Shown in pieces: positions 5,595 to 26,779 of a stretch of DNA of 47,304 bases; position 1 is the first letter of the stretch; every line of letters starts with the position of its first letter. The stretch comes from Pseudomonadota bacterium (GTDB taxonomy: Bacteria > Pseudomonadota > Gammaproteobacteria > Acidiferrobacterales > Acidiferrobacteraceae). The stretch is from positions 1-47,304 of the forward strand of contig JAKBUS010000013.1 of NCBI GenBank assembly GCA_021841585.1. Direction: 5' to 3'. The position numbers were made by a program, and so were the translations under genes. The notes beneath the pieces were generated by a model. The model saw only the letters and a list, made by a program, of their open reading frames with translations, searched no databases and was not told where the DNA came from.

Positions 5595-7253
5595 ATGATG
5601 ATCGCGGAAATGGCATCGCGGTTGATGTTGGTTGCGCCCTGGCCGCTCTTGGCCGCGGGCGTTGTCGTGGGGGTGGGCGCCGATCGCCATCCCCGAGTCA
5701 TGCGGGCCGCCACCACAGGCGCCGCCTGGTTCGCGCTTGCCTGCGCGATCCTGGCGGCCGTGGCCTATGGTTTCGGCGCCACCCACTCCGAGACCTACCT
5801 GAGTCTGCACCTGCCGGCGCGCCTCGGGGCGCTCGCGGTCAGTGTCGACGTCGATGTTTTGACGCTCATCATGCTGACGCTGGTGGCCTTCGTCGGCATG
5901 ATCGTGGCGCGCTACTCGAAGACCTACATGGATGGCGATGAACACGAAGGCCGCTTCCATCGTTGGCTGGCCTTGACGCTCGGCTCGTTCTTGACGCTCA
6001 TTGTGGCCGGCAACGTGTGGGGCTTCTGGGTCTCGTGGGTGGCTACGAGTCTGTGCCTCCATGAGCTCCTGGCCTTTTATCGCGATCGGCCCGGCGCGGT
6101 GCTCGCCGCGCGCAAGAAGTATCTGCTCCATCGGCTGGCGGATGCCTGTCTGTTCTCGGCCTTCGCGCTCATCGTGCGCGCGCTCCATAGCGCGCAGTGG
6201 GCGGGTATCGGCCGGGCGCTTGCCCATACCGCGAGCCCGTTGCCGGAAGGTCTGGCGGTGGCTGCCGCCCTCATCGTCGTGAGCGCCATCCTAAAGAGCG
6301 CGCAGTTCCCGACCCAGGGCTGGCTCATACAGGTCATGGAGGCACCGACCCCGGTGTCGGCCTTGCTGCATGCCGGCATCATCTATACCGGGGCATTTCT
6401 GGTGCTGCGCGCAAGTCCGCTCATGACCCATGTCAGTTGGGCCGGGGACGTCCTCGCGGGCGTGGGCCTCGTGTCCATCGTGGTGGCCTCGCTCACTATG
6501 ATGACCATGACCAACATCAAGGGCGCGCTCGCTTACTCCACGTGCGCGCAAATGGGGTTCATGTTAATGGAGTGCGGTCTCGGGCTCTACAGCATCGCGG
6601 TCCTGCATATCATTGCGCACTCGGTGTACAAGGCCCATGCCTTCCTGTCGTCGGGGAGCGTCGTTGAACACTTTCGGGCACCCAAGCTCGTGGGGTCAGC
6701 CGCTGCGACTGCGGGACGGGCGTTGCTCGGGCTTACGATCGCGGTGGCCATGGTGCTTGGCGTCGGTAACGCGTTTGGTGTCGGGCTCGTGCGCCAACCC
6801 GCGCTGATCGTCATGGCGGCAATCCTGGCGGTGGGTATGACCCAGCTCCTGGTGCAGGCCTTGAACACCCGCGCAGGCGCCATGGGCGGTCTGCTCGTGC
6901 GTATGACGGGCTTGAGCGCGCTGGTCTCCGTCGCCTACTTCGCGCTCCATATGGGCTTCGTTGCCCTCCTGAGCGCAAGTGTCCCGGCCGATCCCGTGCA
7001 GATCGGTATCGCCCAGAAGGTCTTGCTGGGGGTGATCGGCGTGGCGTTCCTGGCCCTGCTTTTCATCCAGCAGTTGTTGCCGCGCCTGTCGCAGACGGCC
7101 TTGGGGCGCGCCGCCTACGTCCACTTCTATGGCGGCCTTTATGCCGACAGCATGTTGACCGAGTTTGTTCGCGGCTTCGGGCCGACGCCGGGCGGGGTTG
7201 CCGGACGTCGCCGACCCCTGAATGCCGATCCTTCACATGAGGTGCAATCATGA
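5595..7253 (+). CDS. dabB: DabB, membrane subunit of the DAB inorganic-carbon uptake system
   Basis: A 552-residue protein of the NuoL/MrpA proton-channel family, hydrophobic throughout with many membrane helices. The core motif PTPVSALLHAG is present near residue 255, followed by the MTMTNIKGALAYSTCAQMGFM and HIIAHSVYKAHAFLSSGSVV segments that carry conserved polar and charged residues of the channel. Together with DabA it forms the energy-coupled system that takes up CO2 and traps it as bicarbonate, DabB being the cation-conducting part. The ATG at 5595 follows GGAGGTG at 5583-5589. The stop overlaps the dabA start (ATGA, 7250-7253), so the two are translationally coupled. The adjacent DabA is what separates it from respiratory complex I subunits. 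Confidence 0.92.
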   Translation: MMIAEMASRLMLVAPWPLLAAGVVVGVGADRHPRVMRAATTGAAWFALACAILAAVAYGFGATHSETYLSLHLPARLGALAVSVDVDVLTLIMLTLVAFVGMIVARYSKTYMDGDEHEGRFHRWLALTLGSFLTLIVAGNVWGFWVSWVATSLCLHELLAFYRDRPGAVLAARKKYLLHRLADACLFSAFALIVRALHSAQWAGIGRALAHTASPLPEGLAVAAALIVVSAILKSAQFPTQGWLIQVMEAPTPVSALLHAGIIYTGAFLVLRASPLMTHVSWAGDVLAGVGLVSIVVASLTMMTMTNIKGALAYSTCAQMGFMLMECGLGLYSIAVLHIIAHSVYKAHAFLSSGSVVEHFRAPKLVGSAAATAGRALLGLTIAVAMVLGVGNAFGVGLVRQPALIVMAAILAVGMTQLLVQALNTRAGAMGGLLVRMTGLSALVSVAYFALHMGFVALLSASVPADPVQIGIAQKVLLGVIGVAFLALLFIQQLLPRLSQTALGRAAYVHFYGGLYADSMLTEFVRGFGPTPGGVAGRRRPLNADPSHEVQS

Positions 7254-9754
7254 TCGCCATCACCGATATCGATAAGGAGTTGAAGGCCCGGATCGACAAG
7301 GCCTGTGGACGAATCGCGCCGCTGTGGCCGCTGAAAAGCTTCGTGGCCGTCAACCCGTACTTCGGGCTTGCCGATCAGCCATTCTGGCAGGCCGATGTGA
7401 CTATGAAGCGGGTCGCGGGCCAGGGGCTTACCATGCCGCGGGCGTTTTACAAAAAACGTATCGACAGCGGGCGCATCACGCGCGCGGACCTGGCCGCGGC
7501 GCTCCGCGAGTCCGGGAGTTCCTGGGATGTGGCGACCCTTGAAGAGGCGGTGGCCCGCCCCTCCCAGGCCCCTCTCGCGCCGCTTGTGCTCGTGACCGAC
7601 ATCCTGGGCGAGCTCGATCGTCAGGAATGGCCGGGTTTCGTCTTGGAGCGCATCAGCCAGTACTGCGCCGGCTACTTCGATGAGGGTCAGGCCTTGTGGG
7701 CGATGCCGTGGCGGGAACAGGGTCTCTATGCGGGCTGGCGCGAGTTCGCGCGCCTCGACCGCAATCCGCGGACAGTCGGCCTGCGCGGCATGAACGAGGC
7801 CGTGGGTGACCTCCCAGACCAGGCGCCGCGCGCCATAGGCTGGGCCCTGCGCCAACTTGCGGTGCCGGAGGCGGCCATTGACGACTATCTGCATGCCGCG
7901 CTCTTGAGCGTGGGTGGATGGGCGGGGTGGGCGCGTTACAAGCGCTGGCAGGCCGAGCTTGCCGGCGGCCAGGACGACACCATACGCGATCTGCTCGCGA
8001 TCCGCGTGTGCTGGGACGCGCTCCTCTACAAACTGCGGTTCAGCGAACGTCTGAAGGCGCGCTGGTACCAGGCCATGATCGCGGATGCCGGCACGGCCGC
8101 CAAGGCCGAGACGCAGCCACAGATCTCCGCGAAGGAGACCGATGCCCTGCTGCAGACGGCCTTCGAGATCGGCTACCAGCGGGAGCTCATTACCTCGCTT
8201 ACGGCGGCCCCTGCGGCGCCGGCGCGCAAGGAGCGCGCCCCAGTGCACGCGATCTTTTGCATCGATGTGCGCTCCGAGATCTATAGGCGCGCCTTCGAGA
8301 CCGTGGCCCCGACGGCACGCACCGGCGGATTCGCCGGGTTCTTCGGGGTGCTGATGGAGTACCTGCCGCTGGGCGCATCGCAGGCCAAGGGGCATCTCCC
8401 GATCCTTTTCAACCCATCGTATCGCATCTGCGAACACGTCGCCGGTGCCGACCAGGAGCAGACCAAGGCGCTCATCGCCAAGCGTCATGGGCGGTTGCGC
8501 GCGGCCGATGCCTGGAAGACCTTCAAGACCTCGGCGTCGTCGTGCTTTACGTTCGTCGAGGCCGCGGGCCTGCTCTATGCCCCGAAGATGTTCGGCGACA
8601 GTATGGGCTGGACGCGCACCGTCTCGCACCCCGACGCCAAGGGGCTGGATGACGGGGCCCGCGACCGCCTGGGGCCGAGGCTCGTCAGTGATCATGGCCA
8701 AGGGGCCTGTGCGGCGGGCGGAATTCCGGCCGCCGATCGGCCGGGTGCCGCCGAGTTTGCGCTGCGCAACATGGGCCTGATCCGCGATTTCGCAAGGCTC
8801 GTCGTCTTGGTGGGGCATGGCAGCACGACCGTCAACAACCCGCAGGCTACGGCGCTCGATTGTGGGGCGTGCGCCGGCCAGACGGGTGAGGCCAGCGCGC
8901 GTATTGCGGTGGCTTTGTTGAATGATCCGGTGACGCGCCAGGGGCTGGCCGAAAAGGGCATCAACATCCCGGCCGACACGGTGTTCGTGGCCGGCTTGCA
9001 TGATACGACCACCGACGAGGTGGCTTTGTTCGATACCGCCTCCATACCGTCTACGCATAGCGCCGATCTGCGGCAATTGCGCGAGTGGTTCAAGGCCGCG
9101 GGTCAGCTTACGCGCATGGAGCGTTCCGCGTTTCTCGGGATCGGAGGGCTGCCGGAGGCGCGCGTGGACGCGGACATCAAGCGGCGCACGCGCGATTGGG
9201 CGGAGGTGCGGCCCGAATGGGCGCTTGCCAACAACGCCGCCTTCATAGCCGCGCCGCGCTCCCGCACGGCGCGTTGCGACCTTGGGGGGCGGGCCTTTCT
9301 GCACGACTACACGTGGGGCAACGATGTCGATTTCAAGACCCTGACCCTCATCATGAGCGCGCCCATGGTGGTCGGCAACTGGATCAACATGCAGTACTAC
9401 GGGTCGGTCGTCGACAACGCCCGCTTTGGCAGCGGCAACAAGGTCCTGCACAACGTGGTCGGCGGGTCCATCGGGGTGCTCGAGGGCAATGGCGGCGACC
9501 TGCGCGTGGGGCTCGCCATGCAGTCGCTGCATAACGGTCATCACTGGATGCACGAGCCGATGCGCCTCAATGTCTTCATCGAGGCCCCGCAGGCGGCCAT
9601 GGACGATGTCATCGCCGGCAATCCGCTGGTCCGCCAGCTGGTCGAGAACGCCTGGTTGCATCTCTTCCAGATCGATGACGAGGGCCGTATCCATCGTCGC
9701 GGACTGGATCGGCAATGGCGTGCGGTGGCGCCGGCCACGGGCAAGCCAGAGTAA
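7250..9754 (+). CDS. dabA: DabA, zinc-containing carbonic-anhydrase-like subunit of the DAB system
   Basis: An 834-residue DUF2309/UPF0753 protein. All four zinc-site residues known from Halothiobacillus DabA2 (Cys351, Asp353, His524, Cys539) have counterparts: C337 and D339 in FCIDVRSE, H523 in VGHGS and C538 in LDCGAC. Other family blocks include AVNPYFGL near the N-terminus and the C-terminal HNVVGGSIGVLEG and HHWMHEPMRLNVF. It is a cytoplasmic-side protein that catalyses one-way CO2 hydration when joined to DabB. AGGTG precedes the ATG at 7250, which overlaps the dabB stop. Length and motifs indicate a functional protein, unlike the paralogue at 22506. Confidence 0.95.
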   Translation: MIAITDIDKELKARIDKACGRIAPLWPLKSFVAVNPYFGLADQPFWQADVTMKRVAGQGLTMPRAFYKKRIDSGRITRADLAAALRESGSSWDVATLEEAVARPSQAPLAPLVLVTDILGELDRQEWPGFVLERISQYCAGYFDEGQALWAMPWREQGLYAGWREFARLDRNPRTVGLRGMNEAVGDLPDQAPRAIGWALRQLAVPEAAIDDYLHAALLSVGGWAGWARYKRWQAELAGGQDDTIRDLLAIRVCWDALLYKLRFSERLKARWYQAMIADAGTAAKAETQPQISAKETDALLQTAFEIGYQRELITSLTAAPAAPARKERAPVHAIFCIDVRSEIYRRAFETVAPTARTGGFAGFFGVLMEYLPLGASQAKGHLPILFNPSYRICEHVAGADQEQTKALIAKRHGRLRAADAWKTFKTSASSCFTFVEAAGLLYAPKMFGDSMGWTRTVSHPDAKGLDDGARDRLGPRLVSDHGQGACAAGGIPAADRPGAAEFALRNMGLIRDFARLVVLVGHGSTTVNNPQATALDCGACAGQTGEASARIAVALLNDPVTRQGLAEKGINIPADTVFVAGLHDTTTDEVALFDTASIPSTHSADLRQLREWFKAAGQLTRMERSAFLGIGGLPEARVDADIKRRTRDWAEVRPEWALANNAAFIAAPRSRTARCDLGGRAFLHDYTWGNDVDFKTLTLIMSAPMVVGNWINMQYYGSVVDNARFGSGNKVLHNVVGGSIGVLEGNGGDLRVGLAMQSLHNGHHWMHEPMRLNVFIEAPQAAMDDVIAGNPLVRQLVENAWLHLFQIDDEGRIHRRGLDRQWRAVAPATGKPE

Positions 9755-10924: not shown

Positions 10925-11181
10925 AGGCGGGCGGGGCCCACGGGCCATAAGGTACCCAGGCCGCTTGCGTCTTCGGGGCGTTGACGCGGCGGACCCTGGC
11001 GTACCCTGGACGGTCCGGGCGCGGCATGGGGCCATGGACGGCGCCAGGATCCTCCGGCCGGCCGCAGCCTTCAGGGGTGCGGGGAAGAATTCCCGCGCCT
11101 CGTTTTTTTGGATTACACTAAATTATCACAGAGGTGCCGCACCGATGTCGGCGCCTCGATGCCAATGGAGACTTAAGTTTC

Positions 11182-12207
11182 ATGATGCCGCCAGTGGAAT
11201 CCCTGCATGGCACTGTCGCGCAGCAGCGCAGCATGCTGACAAAGACGCTCTACAAGCCCTTGCGCGCCCTAAGCGAGCAGTGCGCGCGGGTGTGGGGCGA
11301 CCGCGCCGCCCTGGAGGCCGCGCTGCAGGAGACCTTCGCCTCCGTGCCTTATTGCAAGTTCCTGTATGTCCTGGACGCCAATGGCCGGCAGATCACCGCC
11401 AATATGAGCCGGGACGGCCTATTGGAGGAGCACTTCGGGCGTGACCGGTCCGACCGCCCTTATGTCCGGGAGGCGATGTTCGAGCGGGATGCGCTCACGA
11501 ATAGCCGTGGACAGCACTACCAGCACTGGGGGGATCTCGGGGATGGCGGGCAGGCGACGGATTTCGTGCTGTCGGCGGCCTACATCAGTCTGCGGGCGCT
11601 GCGCCCGTCTTTGACCGCCATGCAGTTCGTGCGGGCCGCCCATGGCGGCGTGTTGGGTTTCGTGGGCGCCGACTTTGCCTTGCGAGAGCTTCCGCAGGCG
11701 CAGGCCCTCTACGAGGATCCGCGGCGCCCCCGGCGCGTCGATGCCGATTATCCGCGGCCGGACGCGCCATCGGGGGATACGCGGCTCGCGAGCAAGATGG
11801 ACGGCCAGATCGACACTGTGATCCGCGTCATGGAGGAGTTGATCCTCGTCCATGGCATTTATCATGTCATGCTGCACTTTTCGAGCAGCCAGGCGGTCGT
11901 ATGGGTGGTCGATGACCCCTTCCGGTATCGTCTGCTCGCCATCAACGAGCTCACCAACCCCGACATCTGTTTCGCCTACCCGAAGTGCCCCTACCCGGGC
12001 AATGCGCTGGTCCCGGCCGAGCGTGTCCGCGAGATCCTAGACAACATGAGGACGCTGCGTTCGATGGAGGGCCGCTTCTACTTGCGTACCGGCACTGTCA
12101 ACATCTTCAACGGCATGGTGAGCTTGAGCTTCTCCTCGGACTCCTCGCATTACCTCCCCTACGAGGAGTTCCTGAAGATGGACTATTCGTTCTGGATAGA
12201 TGGGTAG
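11182..12207 (+). CDS. PDC-type sensor domain protein
   Basis: A 341-residue soluble protein whose middle part (about residues 55-185: FASVPYCKFLYVLDANGRQITANMS, DRPYVREAMF, SAAYISLRALRPSLT, GVLGFVGADFALRELP) resembles a PDC/Cache ligand-binding fold. The C-terminal half (HGIYHVMLHFSSSQAVVWVVDDP, LRSMEGRFYLRTGTVNIFNGMVSLSFSSDSSHY) is less familiar. No membrane helix, kinase, GGDEF or methyl-acceptor part is fused, so it would act through a partner. GGAG at 11167-11170 precedes the ATG at 11182 at a slightly long distance; 11185 is also possible. The 3' end overlaps the convergent lipoate-ligase-like gene by 25 bases. Confidence 0.65.
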   Translation: MMPPVESLHGTVAQQRSMLTKTLYKPLRALSEQCARVWGDRAALEAALQETFASVPYCKFLYVLDANGRQITANMSRDGLLEEHFGRDRSDRPYVREAMFERDALTNSRGQHYQHWGDLGDGGQATDFVLSAAYISLRALRPSLTAMQFVRAAHGGVLGFVGADFALRELPQAQALYEDPRRPRRVDADYPRPDAPSGDTRLASKMDGQIDTVIRVMEELILVHGIYHVMLHFSSSQAVVWVVDDPFRYRLLAINELTNPDICFAYPKCPYPGNALVPAERVREILDNMRTLRSMEGRFYLRTGTVNIFNGMVSLSFSSDSSHYLPYEEFLKMDYSFWIDG

Positions 12208-19805: not shown

Positions 19806-20792
19806 TCACCGGGCGCGTGTCTTTGCGGGTCGCTTTTGGAGGGTGCGCGGGCGCGCGCCGGGTTGGGGCTCCGCCACCCAGCCCTTGCGGATCCCGAGCC
19901 CCGGGCCTTCCTTGACCAGAAAGTCGAGGAACACGCTCGCCGTGAGGCCCAGGTGTTTGCCATGCAGGTGGACCGCGTACCAGGTCCTGTGCAGGGGGAA
20001 GCCCACGACATCGAGGATGACGAGGCGTCCGGCCTCCAGTTCCAGTTCCAGGCTGCTCAAAGCCAGCACCGAGATCCCGAGATCGGCCATGATCGCCTGC
20101 TTGATGGCCTCGCTCGACCCAAGCTCCATGTAGGGCTCCACAGTGAGTCCATGTTCCGCAAACATCTGTGCGGCTGACATACGTGTGCCGGAACCAGGCT
20201 CGCGCAGCAGGAAACGGGCGCGGACGATCTCCTCCAGGGGGATATTCGTCCGGCTGGCGAAGGGGTGGTCCGGGTGCGCCACCACCACCAGCAGATTATC
20301 CATGAACGGCCGGACCGCAAGGTCCATGTCGTTCGGGATCTGGCCCATGACGACAAAGTCGTCGACGTTGTCCGCCAGGCGTTCCAGCACCCGCGCGCGG
20401 TTCGTGACCGTAAGCTGAGGCGCTACGTCCGGGTATTCGTGCACGAAAAGCCCCAGAAAATGCGGCATGAAGAACTTCGCGGAGGTGACCACCGCCATCT
20501 TCAGGGGGCCCGCCACCTTGCCCTTCATGTCGGCGATCTCTCCTGTGAGCGCGCGCAGCTGGCCTATCACCGCGACCGTGGCCGCGTACACCTCCTCGCC
20601 GGCGCGTGTCAGCAGGAGCTTCTTGCCGACCCGCTCGATCAGCGGCAGGCCCACGATCTCCTCGAGCCTGCGCACCTGGATATGCACCGCGGGCTGTGTC
20701 AGGCACAGCTCCTCGGCGGCGCGCGTGTAGCTGCGATGGCGGGCGACCGCCTCGAAGAGTCGAAGTTGCTGGAGCGTCCAATGATTAATCAT
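19806..20792 (-). CDS. cbbR: LysR-type regulator CbbR
   Basis: A 328-residue LysR-family protein. The N-terminal winged helix reads LQQLRLFEAVARHRSYTRAAEELCLTQPAVHIQVRRLE, very CbbR-like, followed by the effector domain (KFFMPHFLGLFVHEYPDV, LVVVAHPDHP, LLREPGSGTR, EAIKQAIMADLGISVL). CbbR activates Calvin-cycle and carbon-uptake genes in response to metabolites. It is divergent from the aldolase-like gene, the usual LysR arrangement. It is the only LysR gene in the window and the likely binder of the TNA-N7/8-TNA boxes seen upstream of dabBA and the DabA paralogue. The last 25 residues are a basic tail. Confidence 0.88.
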   Translation of the reverse strand: MINHWTLQQLRLFEAVARHRSYTRAAEELCLTQPAVHIQVRRLEEIVGLPLIERVGKKLLLTRAGEEVYAATVAVIGQLRALTGEIADMKGKVAGPLKMAVVTSAKFFMPHFLGLFVHEYPDVAPQLTVTNRARVLERLADNVDDFVVMGQIPNDMDLAVRPFMDNLLVVVAHPDHPFASRTNIPLEEIVRARFLLREPGSGTRMSAAQMFAEHGLTVEPYMELGSSEAIKQAIMADLGISVLALSSLELELEAGRLVILDVVGFPLHRTWYAVHLHGKHLGLTASVFLDFLVKEGPGLGIRKGWVAEPQPGARPRTLQKRPAKTRAR

Positions 20793-20812
20793 TAACTAGA
20801 ATAAATGGCTGC
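20780..20812. promoter_or_regulatory. AT-rich cbbR/aldolase-like intergenic operator candidate
   Basis: TTA-N7-TAA occurs at 20791-20803 (TTAACTAGAATAA) next to the cbbR start, fitting the TNA-N7/8-TNA LysR pattern and the habit of LysR proteins to bind between themselves and a divergent target. The rest of the gap to 21046 has further AT-rich stretches but no clear -35/-10 pair. Confidence 0.35.
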
Positions 20813-21046: not shown

Positions 21047-22249
21047 ATGCCGTTGGTCGACATGAAGGATATGCTCGCGCACGCTTACCAAAACGGTTAC
21101 GCGGTGGGCGCCTTTGACCTCACGGAGCCTGATTTCCTGCCGGCGGTGTTGGCGGCGGCGGAATCGGCGCGCGCTCCGGTCATCGTCCGTGTCGCCGAGT
21201 CCCGACCCCAAGGTTCGGTCTTTGCCTGGGTCATGGCGGCCGTGGAGGCCGCCGCGGCGCGCGCTACCGTACCCGTGGCGATCCAGTGCGATCAGGGGAC
21301 CGACGCCGATTCCGTCTTGCGCGGGATCGGCCTGGGGGCCAACGGGGTCGTGGCGAGCGCCCTTCAGGAGTCGCTTTTTCGTCATATCGATCGCACGCGC
21401 GCGATCGTGGATGTGGCGCACGCCTGCGGCGTGCCGGTCGAGGGTGAATTGGTGTATGTGTCCGATGGCGATGCCACGGAAGGCCGCGCATCGCGCCCCA
21501 TCGAGTATGCGACCGCAGCCGAGGCCAAGGGCTTCGTCGAACGTACCGGGGTGGATTTCCTGGCCGTCTCCATGGCGCTCGTGCGCGCGCGGGGAAAGTC
21601 GCGGTTCGACTGGGGGCGGCTTCGGGAGATCAATGCCGCGCTCAAGATACCGTTGGCCATACCGGGTGAGGCGGGGCTTTCCGATGAGCAATGTCACAGG
21701 CTCATCATGCTGGGCGCGGCCAAGATTTCCTGTTCCATGGCTCCGGACAGCCTAGCGGGCGAGCGGCTGCGGGCCACGGTACGGCGTGATCGTCATGCCC
21801 CCTACAGCGCCCTGAAGGAGGACCTGCATGAGATGATCGCGGCGCAGCTCGAGCCGCGCATGCGCGCGTGGGGCTCGGCGGGCCGCGCCGCGGAAGTGCT
21901 CGACCGTTGCCGCCCCTGGACCAACATCATGCATGTCATCGTTTACGATACGCCGCGCCTTGATGCCCCGGCGTTGCGGGCGTTGATGGCCGATGGGCAG
22001 CGGTTGCTGTCGGGCATCCCGGGGGTGCGTTCGGTCCAGGCCGGCAGCATCGCGGATGAGGGCAGCCGCTACCGCCACTGCCTGCTGACGCGCCTGGTGT
22101 CGGTGCCGGCGATCGACGCGTTTCGCAGGCACCCGGCCTATACCGGATTCATGGATCGGCGTCTCGCGCCGGTGGCCTCCGATCGCATCGAAGGCGATTA
22201 CCGCATGATCGATGCGTGCCGGGAGATCGCGCCCTTGGCGTTGCCGTAG
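21047..22249 (+). CDS. Class II aldolase-like pseudoenzyme fused to a C-terminal Dabb domain
   Basis: A 400-residue protein. Residues 1-270 follow the class II fructose-bisphosphate aldolase fold (MKDMLAHAYQNGYAVGAF, VIVRVAES, AHACGVPVEGELVYVSDGD, FVERTGVDFLAVSM, GAAKISCS). The zinc histidines are gone: the DHG motif is D82-Q83-G, the GTSHG histidine aligns with R180, and the LHGGSG histidine is P206. The asparagine-rich NVDT segment is replaced by SCSM. Residues about 290-400 (IMHVIVYDTPRLD...GVRSVQAGS...HPAYTGFMDRRLAP) resemble the Dabb stress-responsive dimeric alpha/beta-barrel domain (unrelated to the DabB protein). GAGGG precedes the ATG at 21047. It is unlikely to be an active zinc aldolase; a regulatory or new catalytic role in carbon metabolism is inferred from context. 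Confidence 0.75.
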   Translation: MPLVDMKDMLAHAYQNGYAVGAFDLTEPDFLPAVLAAAESARAPVIVRVAESRPQGSVFAWVMAAVEAAAARATVPVAIQCDQGTDADSVLRGIGLGANGVVASALQESLFRHIDRTRAIVDVAHACGVPVEGELVYVSDGDATEGRASRPIEYATAAEAKGFVERTGVDFLAVSMALVRARGKSRFDWGRLREINAALKIPLAIPGEAGLSDEQCHRLIMLGAAKISCSMAPDSLAGERLRATVRRDRHAPYSALKEDLHEMIAAQLEPRMRAWGSAGRAAEVLDRCRPWTNIMHVIVYDTPRLDAPALRALMADGQRLLSGIPGVRSVQAGSIADEGSRYRHCLLTRLVSVPAIDAFRRHPAYTGFMDRRLAPVASDRIEGDYRMIDACREIAPLALP

Positions 22250-22294
22250 GCACCGACCGCAGGTCGCGCGCCCCCGAACGGGAATTAACCGTAG

Positions 22295-22350
22295 TAAATC
22301 CTCATAATTTTTAATATCAAGTGTCTCTTATTCTTCCGGAGCTCTAATAT
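22295..22350 (+). promoter_or_regulatory. Putative CbbR-type operator and promoter of the DabA-like/DUF6671 genes
   Basis: TAAAT (22295-22299), 16 bases, ATCAAGT (22316-22322), with TCA-N8-TTA at 22317-22330 and a -10-like TAATAT at 22345-22350. The order and spacing match the dabB promoter. Compared without gaps with the minus strand of 18460-18498, about three quarters of 35 positions agree. It sits in the 256-base gap before the DabA-like gene. Confidence 0.5.
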
Positions 22351-22505
22351 CTCCCCCCATGGCCGCAATTGGGTAGTCGGGCCGGAGGACCCAAGTCCAT
22401 GACCAGGATCTCGCAAACAAGGGCAGGGCCGCGGTCTATGGATGCGCCAACATGCGCGCCGGGCGCGATCCTCGCACCGCGCAATCCCGACACGGAGGGG
22501 ACCCC

Positions 22506-24728
22506 ATGGATGGCCCCTTAGCGGCGTGCTGGACGGGGCGCGACGAGGGGTGCATGGCAGACCGCCCAAGGCCGGGCGGCGGCGCCGTGACGACCCGCGA
22601 GTGGCCGGCGTGGTGGGCCGCCGTGCGCGATGCCTGTGGCCGGCTTGCGCCCGCCTGGACCCTGGACGCGTCGGTTGCCGTCAACCCCTACTTCGGATTG
22701 CGTCACCTGGATTTCGAGGCCGCAGGTCTGACCCTGGCGCGGGTGGCTGGCTCCACGCTTGCCATGCCGCGCCGCTATTACCGGGAGCAGATCGCGAGCG
22801 GGCGCATCACGCGCGGTGATATCGCCGAGGCCTTGCGGGCGCACGGCCTGCCGTCCGACAAGGACTATGCGGCCTCGCTCTTGGCGCATGACGGCGCACC
22901 GCCCGTGCAGAGGCTGCCGCTCGTGTCGCATGTCTTGCAGCGCATCGACCCGGGTACGCCGTGGGCGGCCTTCTGCGTCGAGCGTATCAGCCAGTTCGCC
23001 GCCGCTTACTTCGACATAGGCCAGGCCTCATGGCCCTTGCCGTGGCGCGATGAACCCCTCTACGACGCGTGGCGTGGTTTCGCAAAACTCGATGCCAGTC
23101 CCCGCACGGTGGGGTTAAAGCGGGTGGCCGGCCTCGTCGAGGGGCTGCCGCGGGCGCCGCTTGCGTCCATCGCGGTCGTCCTGAAGGCCTTGGCCGTCCC
23201 CGAGGCCCATATCGTAGATTATTGTCACGCCGCGCTTCTCGATATCAGCGGGTGGGCTGCGCGCGTGCAGGATACGCGCCAGGGGTGCGGGGCCGATCGT
23301 GGTCACGCCGACATCGAGCAGCTGCTCGCCATCCGGCTGGCGTGGGAGTTCATCCTCTTTCGCGCCGTCCCGGGGCCGCGGCTGGAGTCCGCCTGGCGGA
23401 CGGCGCTGTCGTCGCTGCCGCCCGCACCCTCGATGCGCATGACCCCCGATGCCCAGGCAGACGCGGTCCTGCAGGCGGCGTTCGAGCTTGGGTACCGGCG
23501 GCGCATCGTCGCCGATCTCGCCGCGTGCGTGGAGACGCCTGTCCACAAGGCCCCGCAGGGCCGCGCCCCGCTCCAGGCGGTGTTTTGCGCGCACAACCGT
23601 GTGGAGGTCTTTCGCCGCGCCATGGAAACCGTCGCCCCCGCAGTACAGACCCTGGGATTCAGCGGATTTTGTGGGCTTGCCTTCGCCCGCGCCCCCTTCG
23701 ACCCGTTCATGGACGGCCCGCGATACGCGTGGCCGCCCTTGCCGCCATCGGCGTGCGCGGCCGATCGCGATGAGCTAAGCGATATCGCCGTCGACCAAGC
23801 CGCGACGGCCATCCTCCGGACCATGTCGCTCACAGACGGCTTCGCACGGCTGGTGTTACTGATCGATCACGGCGCGCCTTTCGCCCATAAGCCGCATGGC
23901 GCAACACCCGCTCGAGCGGGTGTTGCGCCCTGGGCCGGCGAGACCGACGCGCGCACGGCGGCGGCGTGGCTGAATGATCCAGCGCTACGCGCGCGGCTTG
24001 CGCGCAGCGGCCTTACGATTCCCGCGGATACGGGCTTTGTGGCGGCGCGTTACGACAGCGCGCGCGACGAGGTCGCCTTGTTCGATGCCACGTCATGGGA
24101 AGCGACGCACGCTCAGGATCTGCGGGATGCGCGCGCGATCCTGGAAGAGGCGGGCGCGCGCGCGCGTGAAGAGCGCGCCCAAGCCTCGGTCCCGCCGGTC
24201 GCCGCCGGCCTGGAATTTGCCGGCCATGCCGCCTTCATCGCGGCGCCGCGCGCGCGCACGAAAGGCGTCGTATTGGACGGCCGCGCGTTCCTCCATGACT
24301 ACGACTGGCGCCGGGATGAGGATTTCCGGGTCCTGCGGCACATCATGACCGCGCCGATGATGGCGGCGCACTGGATGAACATGCGCTACTACGCATCCAT
24401 GGTCGACAACAAGCGCTTCGGCGGTGGCAACAAGGCCCTGCACAATATGGTGGGCGGATGCGTCGGGGTGCTGGAAGGTGGGGGCGGCGACCTCAGAAAC
24501 GGCCTTCCAATCCAGTCGCTTTTTGATGGCGGCCATTGGGTCCATGAGCCGATGCGCCTGAATGTGTTCGTGGAGGCGCCGCGCGCCGGCATCGATGAGG
24601 TGCTTGCGCGTCACGAGATCGTGCGTGACGTGGTGGAGCATGGATGGCTGTTCTTGTTTCAGATGGACAGCGAGGCCAGCGGCCTGTTCCTGCGCGCCCG
24701 TGATGGGCGGTGGGAGCAGGTGTCATGA
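22506..24728 (+). CDS. DabA-like protein with altered zinc site
   Basis: A 740-residue DUF2309/UPF0753 protein that aligns with the DabA at 7250 over most of its length (VAVNPYFGLRHLDF, FGGGNKALHNMVGGCVGVLEG, GHWVHEPMRLNVFVEAP). Of the four zinc-site residues, C361 and H455 remain, but the Asp is H363 (FCAHNRVE instead of FCIDVRSE) and the second Cys is R470 (PARAG in place of LDCGA). Normal carbonic-anhydrase-like chemistry is therefore doubtful; a changed metal site or a regulatory role is possible. GGAGGGG at 22494-22500 supports the ATG at 22506. No dabB is adjacent; the coupled partner is DUF6671. A 32-bp palindrome lies in the altered segment. The long open frame and conserved ends argue against simple decay. 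Confidence 0.85.
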   Translation: MDGPLAACWTGRDEGCMADRPRPGGGAVTTREWPAWWAAVRDACGRLAPAWTLDASVAVNPYFGLRHLDFEAAGLTLARVAGSTLAMPRRYYREQIASGRITRGDIAEALRAHGLPSDKDYAASLLAHDGAPPVQRLPLVSHVLQRIDPGTPWAAFCVERISQFAAAYFDIGQASWPLPWRDEPLYDAWRGFAKLDASPRTVGLKRVAGLVEGLPRAPLASIAVVLKALAVPEAHIVDYCHAALLDISGWAARVQDTRQGCGADRGHADIEQLLAIRLAWEFILFRAVPGPRLESAWRTALSSLPPAPSMRMTPDAQADAVLQAAFELGYRRRIVADLAACVETPVHKAPQGRAPLQAVFCAHNRVEVFRRAMETVAPAVQTLGFSGFCGLAFARAPFDPFMDGPRYAWPPLPPSACAADRDELSDIAVDQAATAILRTMSLTDGFARLVLLIDHGAPFAHKPHGATPARAGVAPWAGETDARTAAAWLNDPALRARLARSGLTIPADTGFVAARYDSARDEVALFDATSWEATHAQDLRDARAILEEAGARAREERAQASVPPVAAGLEFAGHAAFIAAPRARTKGVVLDGRAFLHDYDWRRDEDFRVLRHIMTAPMMAAHWMNMRYYASMVDNKRFGGGNKALHNMVGGCVGVLEGGGGDLRNGLPIQSLFDGGHWVHEPMRLNVFVEAPRAGIDEVLARHEIVRDVVEHGWLFLFQMDSEASGLFLRARDGRWEQVS
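23898..23929. repeat. 32-bp perfect palindrome inside the DabA-like gene
   Basis: GGCGCAACACCCGCT and its reverse complement meet at a central CGAG-type core to give a perfect 32-base palindrome. It encodes residues 465-475 of the DabA-like protein, exactly where the fourth zinc ligand (Cys in DabA) should lie. Distances to the flanking conserved residues are the same as in the other DabA, so it replaces rather than lengthens the segment. In RNA it would form a very strong hairpin. Confidence 0.85.
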
Positions 24729-25609
24729 GCCTGGATGGGCATGTGGCGGCCCACGCCTCGCCGGCGCGCAGTCTCTATCGTGGGCGGCGTGCGGCGTTTT
24801 TGACCCAGCACGGCAAGGAGCGCATCGTGGCGCCGGTCCTTGAGGGCTTCGTGGGCTGTCTCGTCGAGCGCGTGGGCGGGTATGACACCGATCTCCTTGG
24901 GACATTCACGCGCGATATTCCGCGCGCCGGCACCCAGCTCGAGGCCGCCCGCCACAAGGCGCGCATCGGTATGGAGCTCTCGGGGCTGCCAGTCGGACTT
25001 GCCAGCGAAGGGTCCTTCACCCGTGATCCGTTCACGGGGATGTTTCCCTGGAATATCGAATTTTTGGTATTCCTGGACGACTTGTTGGGTCTTGAGGTGG
25101 TCGGCATGGCGCAGGGGCGGGCCAACAGCGCCCAGGTCTTAGCGGCGGGCTGGGAGGACGCCGAGCGGTTCGCGCACGCGGTCCGCTTTCCCGAGCATTA
25201 TTTGGTCCTAAGGCCCGACGGCGACGATGATCCCCGCATCCGCAAGGGGATCGCCGATTGGTCGGGACTCAAGACGGCCTATGAGGAGGCCGCCGCGCGC
25301 TCGTCGAGCGGGCGGGTGTTCGTGGAGGTGGATCTGCGCGCCTACGCCAATCCCACGCGCCTCATCAATATCCGACTCGCCGCGGTCGACCTCGGCCGGC
25401 GCCTGGCATCGTTGTGCCCCGTTTGCCGCACGCCCGGATTTTGGGTGGTGGAGGTGATCGCCGGGCTCCCCTGCCAGGCATGCGGGGCGCCGACGCGCGA
25501 GGCGCGCGCCGAGGTCCGTGGTTGCATGAAGTGCGGGCATCGGGTAACGCGTGATCGCGAGGATCTCGCGCAGGCGGACCCGGCCCGCTGCGATATCTGT
25601 AATCCCTAG
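24725..25609 (+). CDS. DUF6671-like protein with C-terminal cysteine pairs
   Basis: A 294-residue soluble protein. The N-terminal part (RSLYRGRRAAFLTQHGKERIVAPVL, RVGGYDTDLLGTFTRDIPRAGTQLEAARHKARIGMELSG, FTGMFPWNIEFLVFLDD) fits DUF6671 as I remember it. The C-terminus has four CxxC pairs (CPVC, CQAC, CMKC, CDIC), a double zinc ribbon. Its ATG (24725) overlaps the stop of the DabA-like gene (24726-24728), so the two are translationally coupled and probably act together. The biochemical role of DUF6671 is unknown to me. The conserved Arg, Thr and Glu residues in the N-terminal half could form an active or nucleotide-binding site. Confidence 0.75.
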   Translation: MSLDGHVAAHASPARSLYRGRRAAFLTQHGKERIVAPVLEGFVGCLVERVGGYDTDLLGTFTRDIPRAGTQLEAARHKARIGMELSGLPVGLASEGSFTRDPFTGMFPWNIEFLVFLDDLLGLEVVGMAQGRANSAQVLAAGWEDAERFAHAVRFPEHYLVLRPDGDDDPRIRKGIADWSGLKTAYEEAAARSSSGRVFVEVDLRAYANPTRLINIRLAAVDLGRRLASLCPVCRTPGFWVVEVIAGLPCQACGAPTREARAEVRGCMKCGHRVTRDREDLAQADPARCDICNP

Positions 25610-25678: not shown

Positions 25679-26779
25679 GTGAGCGACAACTTTGGCGATG
25701 GCGCGCGCCGATGCGCGCCGGACGCGGACGCAAAGGCCCAGGTGCCGGCAGCATCCCTTCGCCTCATCCGCCCCGACGATTGGCACGTTCATCTGCGCGA
25801 TGGGGCGATGCTGGCCACGGCGGTGGCGGATAGCGCGCGGCGTTTCGCGCGCGCCATCGTCATGCCCAATCTCGATCCCCCGGTGCGCACCGTAGATGAG
25901 GCCTTGGCCTATCGCGCGCGCATCCTGTCGGCATTGCCCGCGGGCGCGCGCTTTGAGCCCCTCATGACGCTGTATCTCACCGAGGAGACGCGGCCTGCGG
26001 AGATCGCACAAGCGCGCGCGACGGGCCTTGTGCACGCCGTCAAGTACTATCCGGCCGGCGCCACCACCCATGCCGCGCGCGGCGTGCGAGATCTTGCGCG
26101 CTGTTATCCGGTCTTGGCGGCCATGGAGCGCCATGATCTCCCCTTGCTCCTGCATGGCGAGGTCACGGACCCCTCGGTGGATGTCTTCGATCGCGAGGCC
26201 ATGTTCCTCGAGCGCCACTTGTCGCCGCTCATGCGCGCGTTCCCGGGCCTGCGCATGGTTTTGGAGCACATCACGACCCGCGCCGCGGTCGAATTCGTGA
26301 GCGCCGCCCCGCAAACGCTGGCTGCCACCGTGACCGCCCACCATCTGCTGCTCGATCGCAATGCGCTCTTCGCGGGGGGGCTACGGCCGCATCACTACTG
26401 TCTGCCCCTTCTAAAGCGCGCCCACCACCGCGCTGCGCTGGTCGGCGCGGCGACCGGCGGCAATCCGAAGTTTTTTCTCGGGACTGATAGCGCGCCACAT
26501 CCTCGGCACGCCAAGGAGTCGTCCTGCGGGTGCGCTGGGATCTATACCGCGCATGCCGCGCTTGAGCTCTATGCAGAGGTCTTCGAAAAGGCCCACGCGC
26601 TCGACCGCCTGGAGGGGTTCGCAAGCTGTTACGGCCCGGACTTCTACCGTCTGCCGCGCAATCAAGATCGTGTCACGCTCATCAAGGCTCCATGGCGTGT
26701 CCCGTCCACCATAACCGCTGGCACGGACGTGCTCGTGCCCTTGCGCGCCGGAGAGGACATCGCATGGCAGCTTAGCTGA
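25679..26779 (+). CDS. pyrC: Dihydroorotase
   Basis: A 366-residue class II (PyrC, homodimeric) dihydroorotase that interconverts carbamoyl-aspartate and dihydroorotate in pyrimidine synthesis. Metal and catalytic residues are all visible: H36 and H38 in [10 protein letters not shown], the carboxylated K122 in VKYYPAG, H159 in LLLHGE, H197 in LEHIT and D270 in GTDSAPH. The start is a GTG at 25679 preceded by GAGGGCG. An N-terminal extension of about 25 residues comes before the conserved start ([12 protein letters not shown]). It stands 69 bases after the DUF6671 gene on the same strand and may be read through from it. Confidence 0.95.

What the first reader, a model, noticed from the sequence alone, without database searches (positions are those of the whole stretch)
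22506..24728. DabA paralogue with Asp-to-His and Cys-to-Arg changes in the zinc site
Direct comparison with the DabA at 7250 shows C361 and H455 kept, while the Asp two residues after the first Cys is H363 and the Cys 15 residues after the His is R470. Halothiobacillus work identified exactly these four residues as zinc ligands. The spacing between ligands is unchanged. A Cys/His/His site or loss of metal would alter or abolish CO2 hydration.
Basis: partly seen in the sequence, partly recalled or inferred. Interest (0 to 1): 0.72.

Follow-up and report, generated by a model that had tools for sequence, protein, structure and literature searches.

The report
Dead, membrane-detached DabA paralogue (Acidiferrobacter)
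Next to a normal CO2-uptake pump, this acid-loving bacterium and seven relatives keep a second copy of the pump's catalytic subunit that has lost its zinc site and its membrane arm, yet natural selection preserves it, so it probably does a new, non-enzymatic job.

Summary
In detail: window 22506-24728 encodes a 740-aa DabA (PF10070) homologue with C361 and H455 kept, H363 for the Asp and R470 for the second Cys. The reading 'Cys/His/His zinc site with unchanged ligand spacing' does not hold. The Cys-to-His distance is 94 residues, against 186 in the canonical DabA at 7250, because the whole membrane 'finger' (alpha16/17, with the essential Glu444) is missing. Seven full-length orthologues exist, all in the same genus (inferred: Acidiferrobacter). 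In these the Asp position reads H/N/G/S and the second Cys R/H/S/I/gap, so no new ligand set is conserved, while about 90 other DabAs keep every active-site residue. The eight form one clade on a long stem. The gene is still under purifying selection (dN/dS 0.17-0.31, against 0.07-0.14 for canonical DabA). Relaxation is concentrated in the zinc loop, the product-tunnel gate and the putative DabB-contact hairpin. It has no DabB of its own. It sits behind a CbbR-like LysR gene and an aldolase homologue that has also lost zinc ligands, and it overlaps a DUF6671 gene (ATGA). Best reading: a soluble, non-catalytic pseudo-DabA retained for a binding or regulatory role. The partner is unknown.

The parts
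22506..24728 (+). dabA' : finger-less, zinc-site-degenerate DabA paralogue (740 aa)
   Evidence: PF10070 E 1e-169 split in two stretches; 45-48% identity to the canonical DabA at 7250; 8 orthologues in one clade, SH-aLRT 100
23586..23594 (+). codons of C361 and H363 (DabA2 C351 and D353)
   Evidence: alignment; C kept 8/8, Asp position H/H/H/N/N/G/S/G
23691..23766 (+). site of the deletion of the membrane finger alpha16/17 with Glu444 (about residues 396-420; low-confidence linker in the AF2 model)
   Evidence: span from GF[AS]GF to His 49-67 residues in dabA', 125-172 in the other DabAs sampled (230 in the third copy L002)
23868..23915 (+). codons H455 to R470 (DabA2 H524 to C539): degenerate zinc loop
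   Evidence: C539 position R/H/gap/I/S/R/R/gap; loop pLDDT <50; 60% pairwise difference in DabA' vs 0% in canonical DabA of the same genomes
24051..24053 (+). codon Y516 (DabA2 H585), His->Tyr fixed in all 8 DabA'
22281..22445 (+). conserved leader/promoter region of dabA' with TTA-N7-TAA (22285-22297)
   Evidence: 73-81% identity over 145-178 nt in the other 7 orthologous loci; half-sites TTA and TAA invariant 8/8 with variable spacer
21047..22249 (+). class II aldolase homologue with degraded zinc ligands plus C-terminal A/B-barrel domain (PF07876 at its cut-off)
   Evidence: canonical FBA is elsewhere
24725..25609 (+). DUF6671 protein, start codon overlaps the dabA' stop (ATGA)
   Evidence: PF20376 E 5e-39; sequence; AF2 pLDDT 87, weak YjjX-like fold match
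19809..20792 (-). LysR-type regulator, best NCBIfam match CbbR (below cut-off), divergent from the aldolase homologue
   Evidence: TTA-N7-TAA at 20792-20804
7250..9754 (+). canonical DabA, all active-site residues and finger (E437 = DabA2 E444) intact
   Evidence: PDB 9rd0 match E 8e-228
5595..7253 (+). DabB partner of the canonical DabA (PF00361); only DabB in the window

Best explanation
DabA' is a pseudoenzyme: a duplicated DabA that can no longer hydrate CO2 or couple to the proton motive force, and that is kept as a soluble, non-catalytic protein in a LysR (CbbR-like)-linked aldolase homologue - dabA' - DUF6671 cluster. Shown: loss of Zn ligand C539, Asp353, His585, the T2 gate residues and the whole membrane finger; one clade; purifying selection; relaxation centred on catalysis and on the putative DabB contact, with the NTD middle part and C-terminus still constrained; no DabB of its own. 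Inferred: it acts by binding partners or ligands (candidates: the translationally coupled DUF6671 protein, the aldolase homologue, or CO2/HCO3- in the retained T1 tunnel) as a regulator or scaffold of carbon acquisition.
For: Residues: in 8/8 orthologues D353, C539 and H585 are lost, while every other DabA sampled (about 90) keeps the eight checked catalytic-site residues. Finger with E444 absent in 8/8 (E444 essential). Tree: 8 rows, one clade 100, stem 1.27. Selection: NG86 dN/dS 0.225 (95% bootstrap 0.17-0.31) against 0.097 (0.07-0.14) for canonical DabA in the same two genomes; YN00 0.16 against 0.06. Same-genome comparison: Zn loop 60% vs 0% divergence, T2 gate 9.6x, domain II hairpin 9.1x, NTD 101-200 1.1x, C-terminus 1.7x. 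Operon: ATGA overlap with DUF6671 and synteny LysR-FBA'-DabA'-DUF6671 in all eight. AF2 model keeps a beta-CA-like fold (top PDB hit CsoSCA, probability 1.00 but E 4e-3) with the zinc loop and finger site unstructured.
Against: C351 is kept in 8/8, H524 in 7/8 and R355 in 6/8, so a residual metal or structural role of the old site is possible. The regulatory or scaffold role has no direct evidence, and no partner is shown. One genome (G012) holds only a short relic of the gene and five other genus members have no DabA' match, so the gene is dispensable in parts of the genus.
Confidence: 0.72

Rival explanations
1. A gene in slow decay: DabA' lost its function after duplication and survives by inertia, with residual constraint only.
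For: dN/dS is 2-3 times that of canonical DabA; short branches of canonical copies vs long ones here; relic in G012 between aldolase homologue and DUF6671, no match in G002, G003, G005, G007, G011.
Against: Eight independent full-length reading frames without stops at dS 0.25-0.67 between sampled pairs; dN/dS significantly below 1 (upper bound 0.31-0.35); conserved upstream region and ATGA coupling; constraint is regional, not uniform.
Confidence: 0.15
2. An enzyme with a changed site: zinc held by Cys/His/His (or Cys/His plus water) gives a soluble carbonic anhydrase or another hydratase free of DabB.
For: C351 8/8, H524 7/8 and R355 6/8 retained; extra His in the window loop (H461, H464); T1 tunnel residues F375, F378, I700, P704 mostly retained.
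Against: No third ligand is conserved: positions 353 and 539 are free to vary; H585 and the T2 gate lost; zinc loop disordered in the model; G009 orthologue lacks H524 as well.
Confidence: 0.06
3. A DabB-binding modulator: DabA' docks on DabB in place of DabA and blocks or tunes the pump.
For: Same chromosomal neighbourhood as the dabBA operon; overall fold retained; C-terminal domain still 56% identical to canonical DabA.
Against: The finger that inserts between DabB helices is gone, and the domain II hairpin assigned here to the cytoplasmic DabB contact is among the most relaxed parts (9.1x). The hairpin assignment is read from the paper's text, not from coordinates.
Confidence: 0.12

Closest known systems
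DabA2 of Halothiobacillus neapolitanus (PDB 9rd0; PMC13144422), PF10070
   Same: Homologous along the whole length except the finger; [quoted passage not shown] C351, R355, H524 equivalents present in the window copy
   Different: Lacks Zn ligand C539, D353, H585, R653/W656 gate, and the alpha16/17 membrane finger with E444; no DabB partner gene
Canonical DabA at window 7250 and the third DabA on contig C81 (with its own DabB)
   Same: Paralogues in the same genome
   Different: Both have all ligands; both follow a DabB gene
MpsB of Staphylococcus and Tcr_0854-type DACs (other PF10070 proteins with a DabB-type partner; from PMC13144422 and general knowledge)
   Same: Family
   Different: Work as two-subunit systems; not sampled here
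Class II fructose-bisphosphate aldolase (for the neighbour at 21047)
   Same: PF01116 barrel, 148 bits
   Different: DHG->DQG, GTSHG->ALVRARG, MHGSS->IPGE in the window copy; extra A/B-barrel domain

Membership tests
DabA / PF10070 (homology) | Profile match over the family | tested here: met
   566.8 bits, E 1.1e-169, but in two stretches split at the finger
DabA (vectorial carbonic anhydrase subunit) | Zn ligands C351, H524, C539 | tested here: not met
   C and H present in the window copy, C539 is Arg; no conserved replacement in 8 orthologues
DabA (vectorial carbonic anhydrase subunit) | Asp353-Arg355 dyad | tested here: not met
   Asp is H/N/G/S in 8/8; Arg kept in 6/8
DabA (vectorial carbonic anhydrase subunit) | Membrane finger alpha16/17 with Glu444 completing the proton path | tested here: not met
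   about 90 residues absent in 8/8
DAB/DAC complex | Cognate DabB (PF00361) gene next to dabA | tested here: not met
   No DabB in the dabA' cluster in any of 8 loci
DAB/DAC complex | PMF-dependent CO2 uptake; rescue of CA-deficient E. coli | not testable with these tools
   needs bench work
Beta-carbonic anhydrase-like fold | Rossmann-type beta-CA domains | tested here: inconclusive
   AF2 pTM 0.82, best Foldseek PDB hit CsoSCA prob 1.00 but E 4e-3; 9rd0 did not appear among the hits listed
Class II aldolase (neighbour) | Three His zinc ligands | tested here: not met
   each of the eight neighbours of dabA' lacks at least two of the three

The most novel reading that the evidence does not exclude
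Acidiferrobacter has turned two carbon-fixation enzymes, a class II aldolase and the CO2-pump subunit DabA, into a co-regulated pair of non-catalytic proteins that, with the DAB-linked DUF6671 protein, sense or relay CO2 / sugar-phosphate status or scaffold carbon uptake.
Probability: 0.2. Interest if true: 0.75.

Novelty: new variant of a known kind. Interest (0 to 1): 0.5.

Why it matters
DabA was structurally understood only in 2026, and which parts serve catalysis, coupling or assembly is open. A naturally finger-less, zinc-dead but retained DabA clade is a natural dissection: it shows which surfaces stay constrained when catalysis and coupling are gone, and it points to a non-catalytic role and to DUF6671 as an unstudied DAB-linked partner. 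It also warns annotators that a strong PF10070 hit (567 bits) need not mean a CO2 pump.

Tried and rejected
Orthologues outside the genus: none among the other-genus genomes of the order or the 80 best of 384 genome-contig hits, within the pre-filter limits. Other finger-less DabAs: no full-length match in the sampled phylum and class genomes (397 and 370, partly overlapping) shows the 331-447 profile gap, but at most two candidates per genome were scored there. IQ-TREE codon models gave no omega in the output, so pairwise NG86/YN00 with bootstrap was used. The apparent residue at E444 in the alignment is a gap-placement artefact of a 5-residue remnant. Rfam: no RNA family in the window; RNA structure of the conserved leader: little covariation (-0.83), so read as a promoter region. 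No paper in the library mentions DUF6671, and none read describes a degenerate DabA. Foldseek of DUF6671 gives only weak YjjX/CinA-like hits.

Full report
Observation. The ORF ending at 24728 (+) starts at ATG 22506 (GGAGG ahead of it; an earlier ATG at 22452 is possible) and encodes 740 aa of the DabA family, PF10070, E 1e-169, in two stretches. Against the canonical DabA at 7250-9754 it keeps C361 (C337) and H455 (H523) and has H363 for D339 and R470 for C538. The claim of unchanged spacing is not: Cys-to-His is 94 residues here and 186 in the canonical copy, because about 90 residues are missing.

What is missing. The cryo-EM work on H. neapolitanus DAB2 (PMC13144422; PDB 9rd0) shows zinc on C351, H524, C539 and water. 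D353-R355 orients the water, H585 and D590 lie on the putative proton relay, and a membrane-inserted finger (alpha16/17) carries E444, without which activity is lost. The canonical DabA at 7250 aligns to 9rd0 over its length with all of these. The paralogue lacks C539, D353, H585 (Tyr), the whole finger and the R653/W656 tunnel gate.

Orthologues. Eight genomes of the genus, the window's included, have the gene, the other seven at 60-73% identity to the window copy, with open frames. At the Asp position they read H,H,H,N,N,G,S,G, and at the second Cys R,H,-,I,S,R,R,-. H585 is Tyr in all; C351 is kept in all, H524 in seven. About 90 other DabAs, from other genera and the canonical copies, keep the eight checked catalytic-site residues and the finger span. 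The tree puts the eight in one clade (SH-aLRT 100, stem 1.27) beside the DabAs of this family, Acidithiobacillus and other acid-mine bacteria.

Which organism. 

Selection. Between G001 and G013, dN/dS (NG86) of dabA' is 0.225 (95% bootstrap 0.17-0.31). Canonical dabA gives 0.097 (0.07-0.14), the aldolase homologue 0.26, DUF6671 0.22 (YN00 values). So the gene is constrained, but less than its parent. In six genomes that hold both copies, the divergence ratio DabA'/DabA is 1.1 in NTD 101-200 and domII 281-336, 1.7 at the C-terminus, 3-5 in most of domain I and early domain II, 9.6 at the T2 gate and 9.1 in the domain II hairpin 720-770; the zinc loop differs at 60% of positions against 0%. That hairpin is assigned by me to the cytoplasmic DabB contact from the wording of the paper, not from coordinates. 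Not all of the NTD is quiet: residues 201-280 show a ratio of 3.9.

Model. AF2 gives pTM 0.82 and mean pLDDT 76. The finger site (389-422), zinc loop (458-476) and hairpin (640-678) are below 50. The best PDB match is the beta-CA CsoSCA (probability 1.00, E 4e-3); this is weak support for the fold, and sequence homology to 9rd0 (E 4e-122) is the stronger argument.

Neighbourhood. In all eight loci the order is LysR (divergent), aldolase homologue, dabA', DUF6671, dihydroorotase-like, ilvD. dabA' and DUF6671 overlap by ATGA in the window. No DabB is in the cluster; the other DabAs of this genome have one. In G003 and G005 LysR and DUF6671 stand together without the two inserted genes, and in G007 only a trace of the aldolase homologue remains. 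G014 has the aldolase homologue and DUF6671 without dabA'. G012 keeps LysR, aldolase homologue and DUF6671 with a short dabA'-like remnant between them (tblastn E 0.015 at the expected place). About 165 nt ahead of dabA' are 73-81% identical in the other seven loci, with an invariant TTA-N7-TAA; the same motif lies between LysR and the aldolase homologue. The window has four such motifs where 0.8 are expected. That this motif resembles CbbR sites is from general knowledge.

The neighbour is degraded too. The aldolase homologue has lost zinc His ligands in all eight (window: DHG->DQG, GTSHG->ALVRARG, MHGSS->IPGE), while a normal aldolase is elsewhere (G000:C100). A relative in G052, 2 kb from another DabA, still has HLDHG, GTVHG and VIHGG; G011 and G012 are intermediate. 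So two enzymes tied to carbon fixation have been degraded side by side.

DUF6671. This uncharacterised family recurs next to ordinary dabBA operons: 17 of 75 non-genus loci carry it within the fetched flank, and all five other genomes with it in a class sample have DabA, three of them within 350 bp. It has a C-terminal set of invariant Cys and a weak YjjX-like fold match.

Judgement. Loss of catalysis and of PMF coupling is very likely on sequence grounds. Retention for a non-catalytic role is the best reading but rests on selection and synteny only. DabB modulation is disfavoured by the missing finger and relaxed hairpin; slow decay is the main rival. Caveats: most genomes are MAGs; identity of the genus is inferred; broad scans scored at most two DabA candidates per genome.

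Noticed in passing
window 21047-22249: Class II aldolase homologue with degraded zinc ligands in all 8 orthologues, carrying a C-terminal A/B-barrel domain; a ladder of degradation from intact (G052, L143) through G011/G012 is visible.
   Followed up: partly
window 24725-25609; L063 L064 L066 L068 L073 L076 L090 L105 L107 L112 L114-L117 L120 L121 L126: DUF6671 family (unknown function) recurs next to dabBA operons in several lineages; YjjX-like domain (weak) plus C-terminal Cys cluster. A candidate accessory protein of DAB systems.
   Followed up: partly
window 22281-22445: Strongly conserved non-coding leader ahead of dabA' (73-81% in the 7 other loci) with an invariant TTA-N7-TAA and an AT-rich block; same motif at 20792-20804.
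   Followed up: partly
L140 1805-2035 (-): Short relic of the dabA' C-terminus (AGGSVGMFEHADGGLGASPPIRLFGEG) between aldolase homologue and DUF6671 in G012.
   Followed up: partly
window 11134-12207: ORF without Pfam or NCBIfam match that follows dabBA in most genomes of the family and in Acidithiobacillus (g11134): conserved unknown gene.
   Followed up: no
window 25679-26779: Dihydroorotase (TIGR00856, 454 bits), present in the eight loci with dabA' and in G012, missing from the loci of G003, G005 and G007.
   Followed up: no
L053, L054: G006 carries two canonical DabB-DabA pairs besides dabA'.
   Followed up: no
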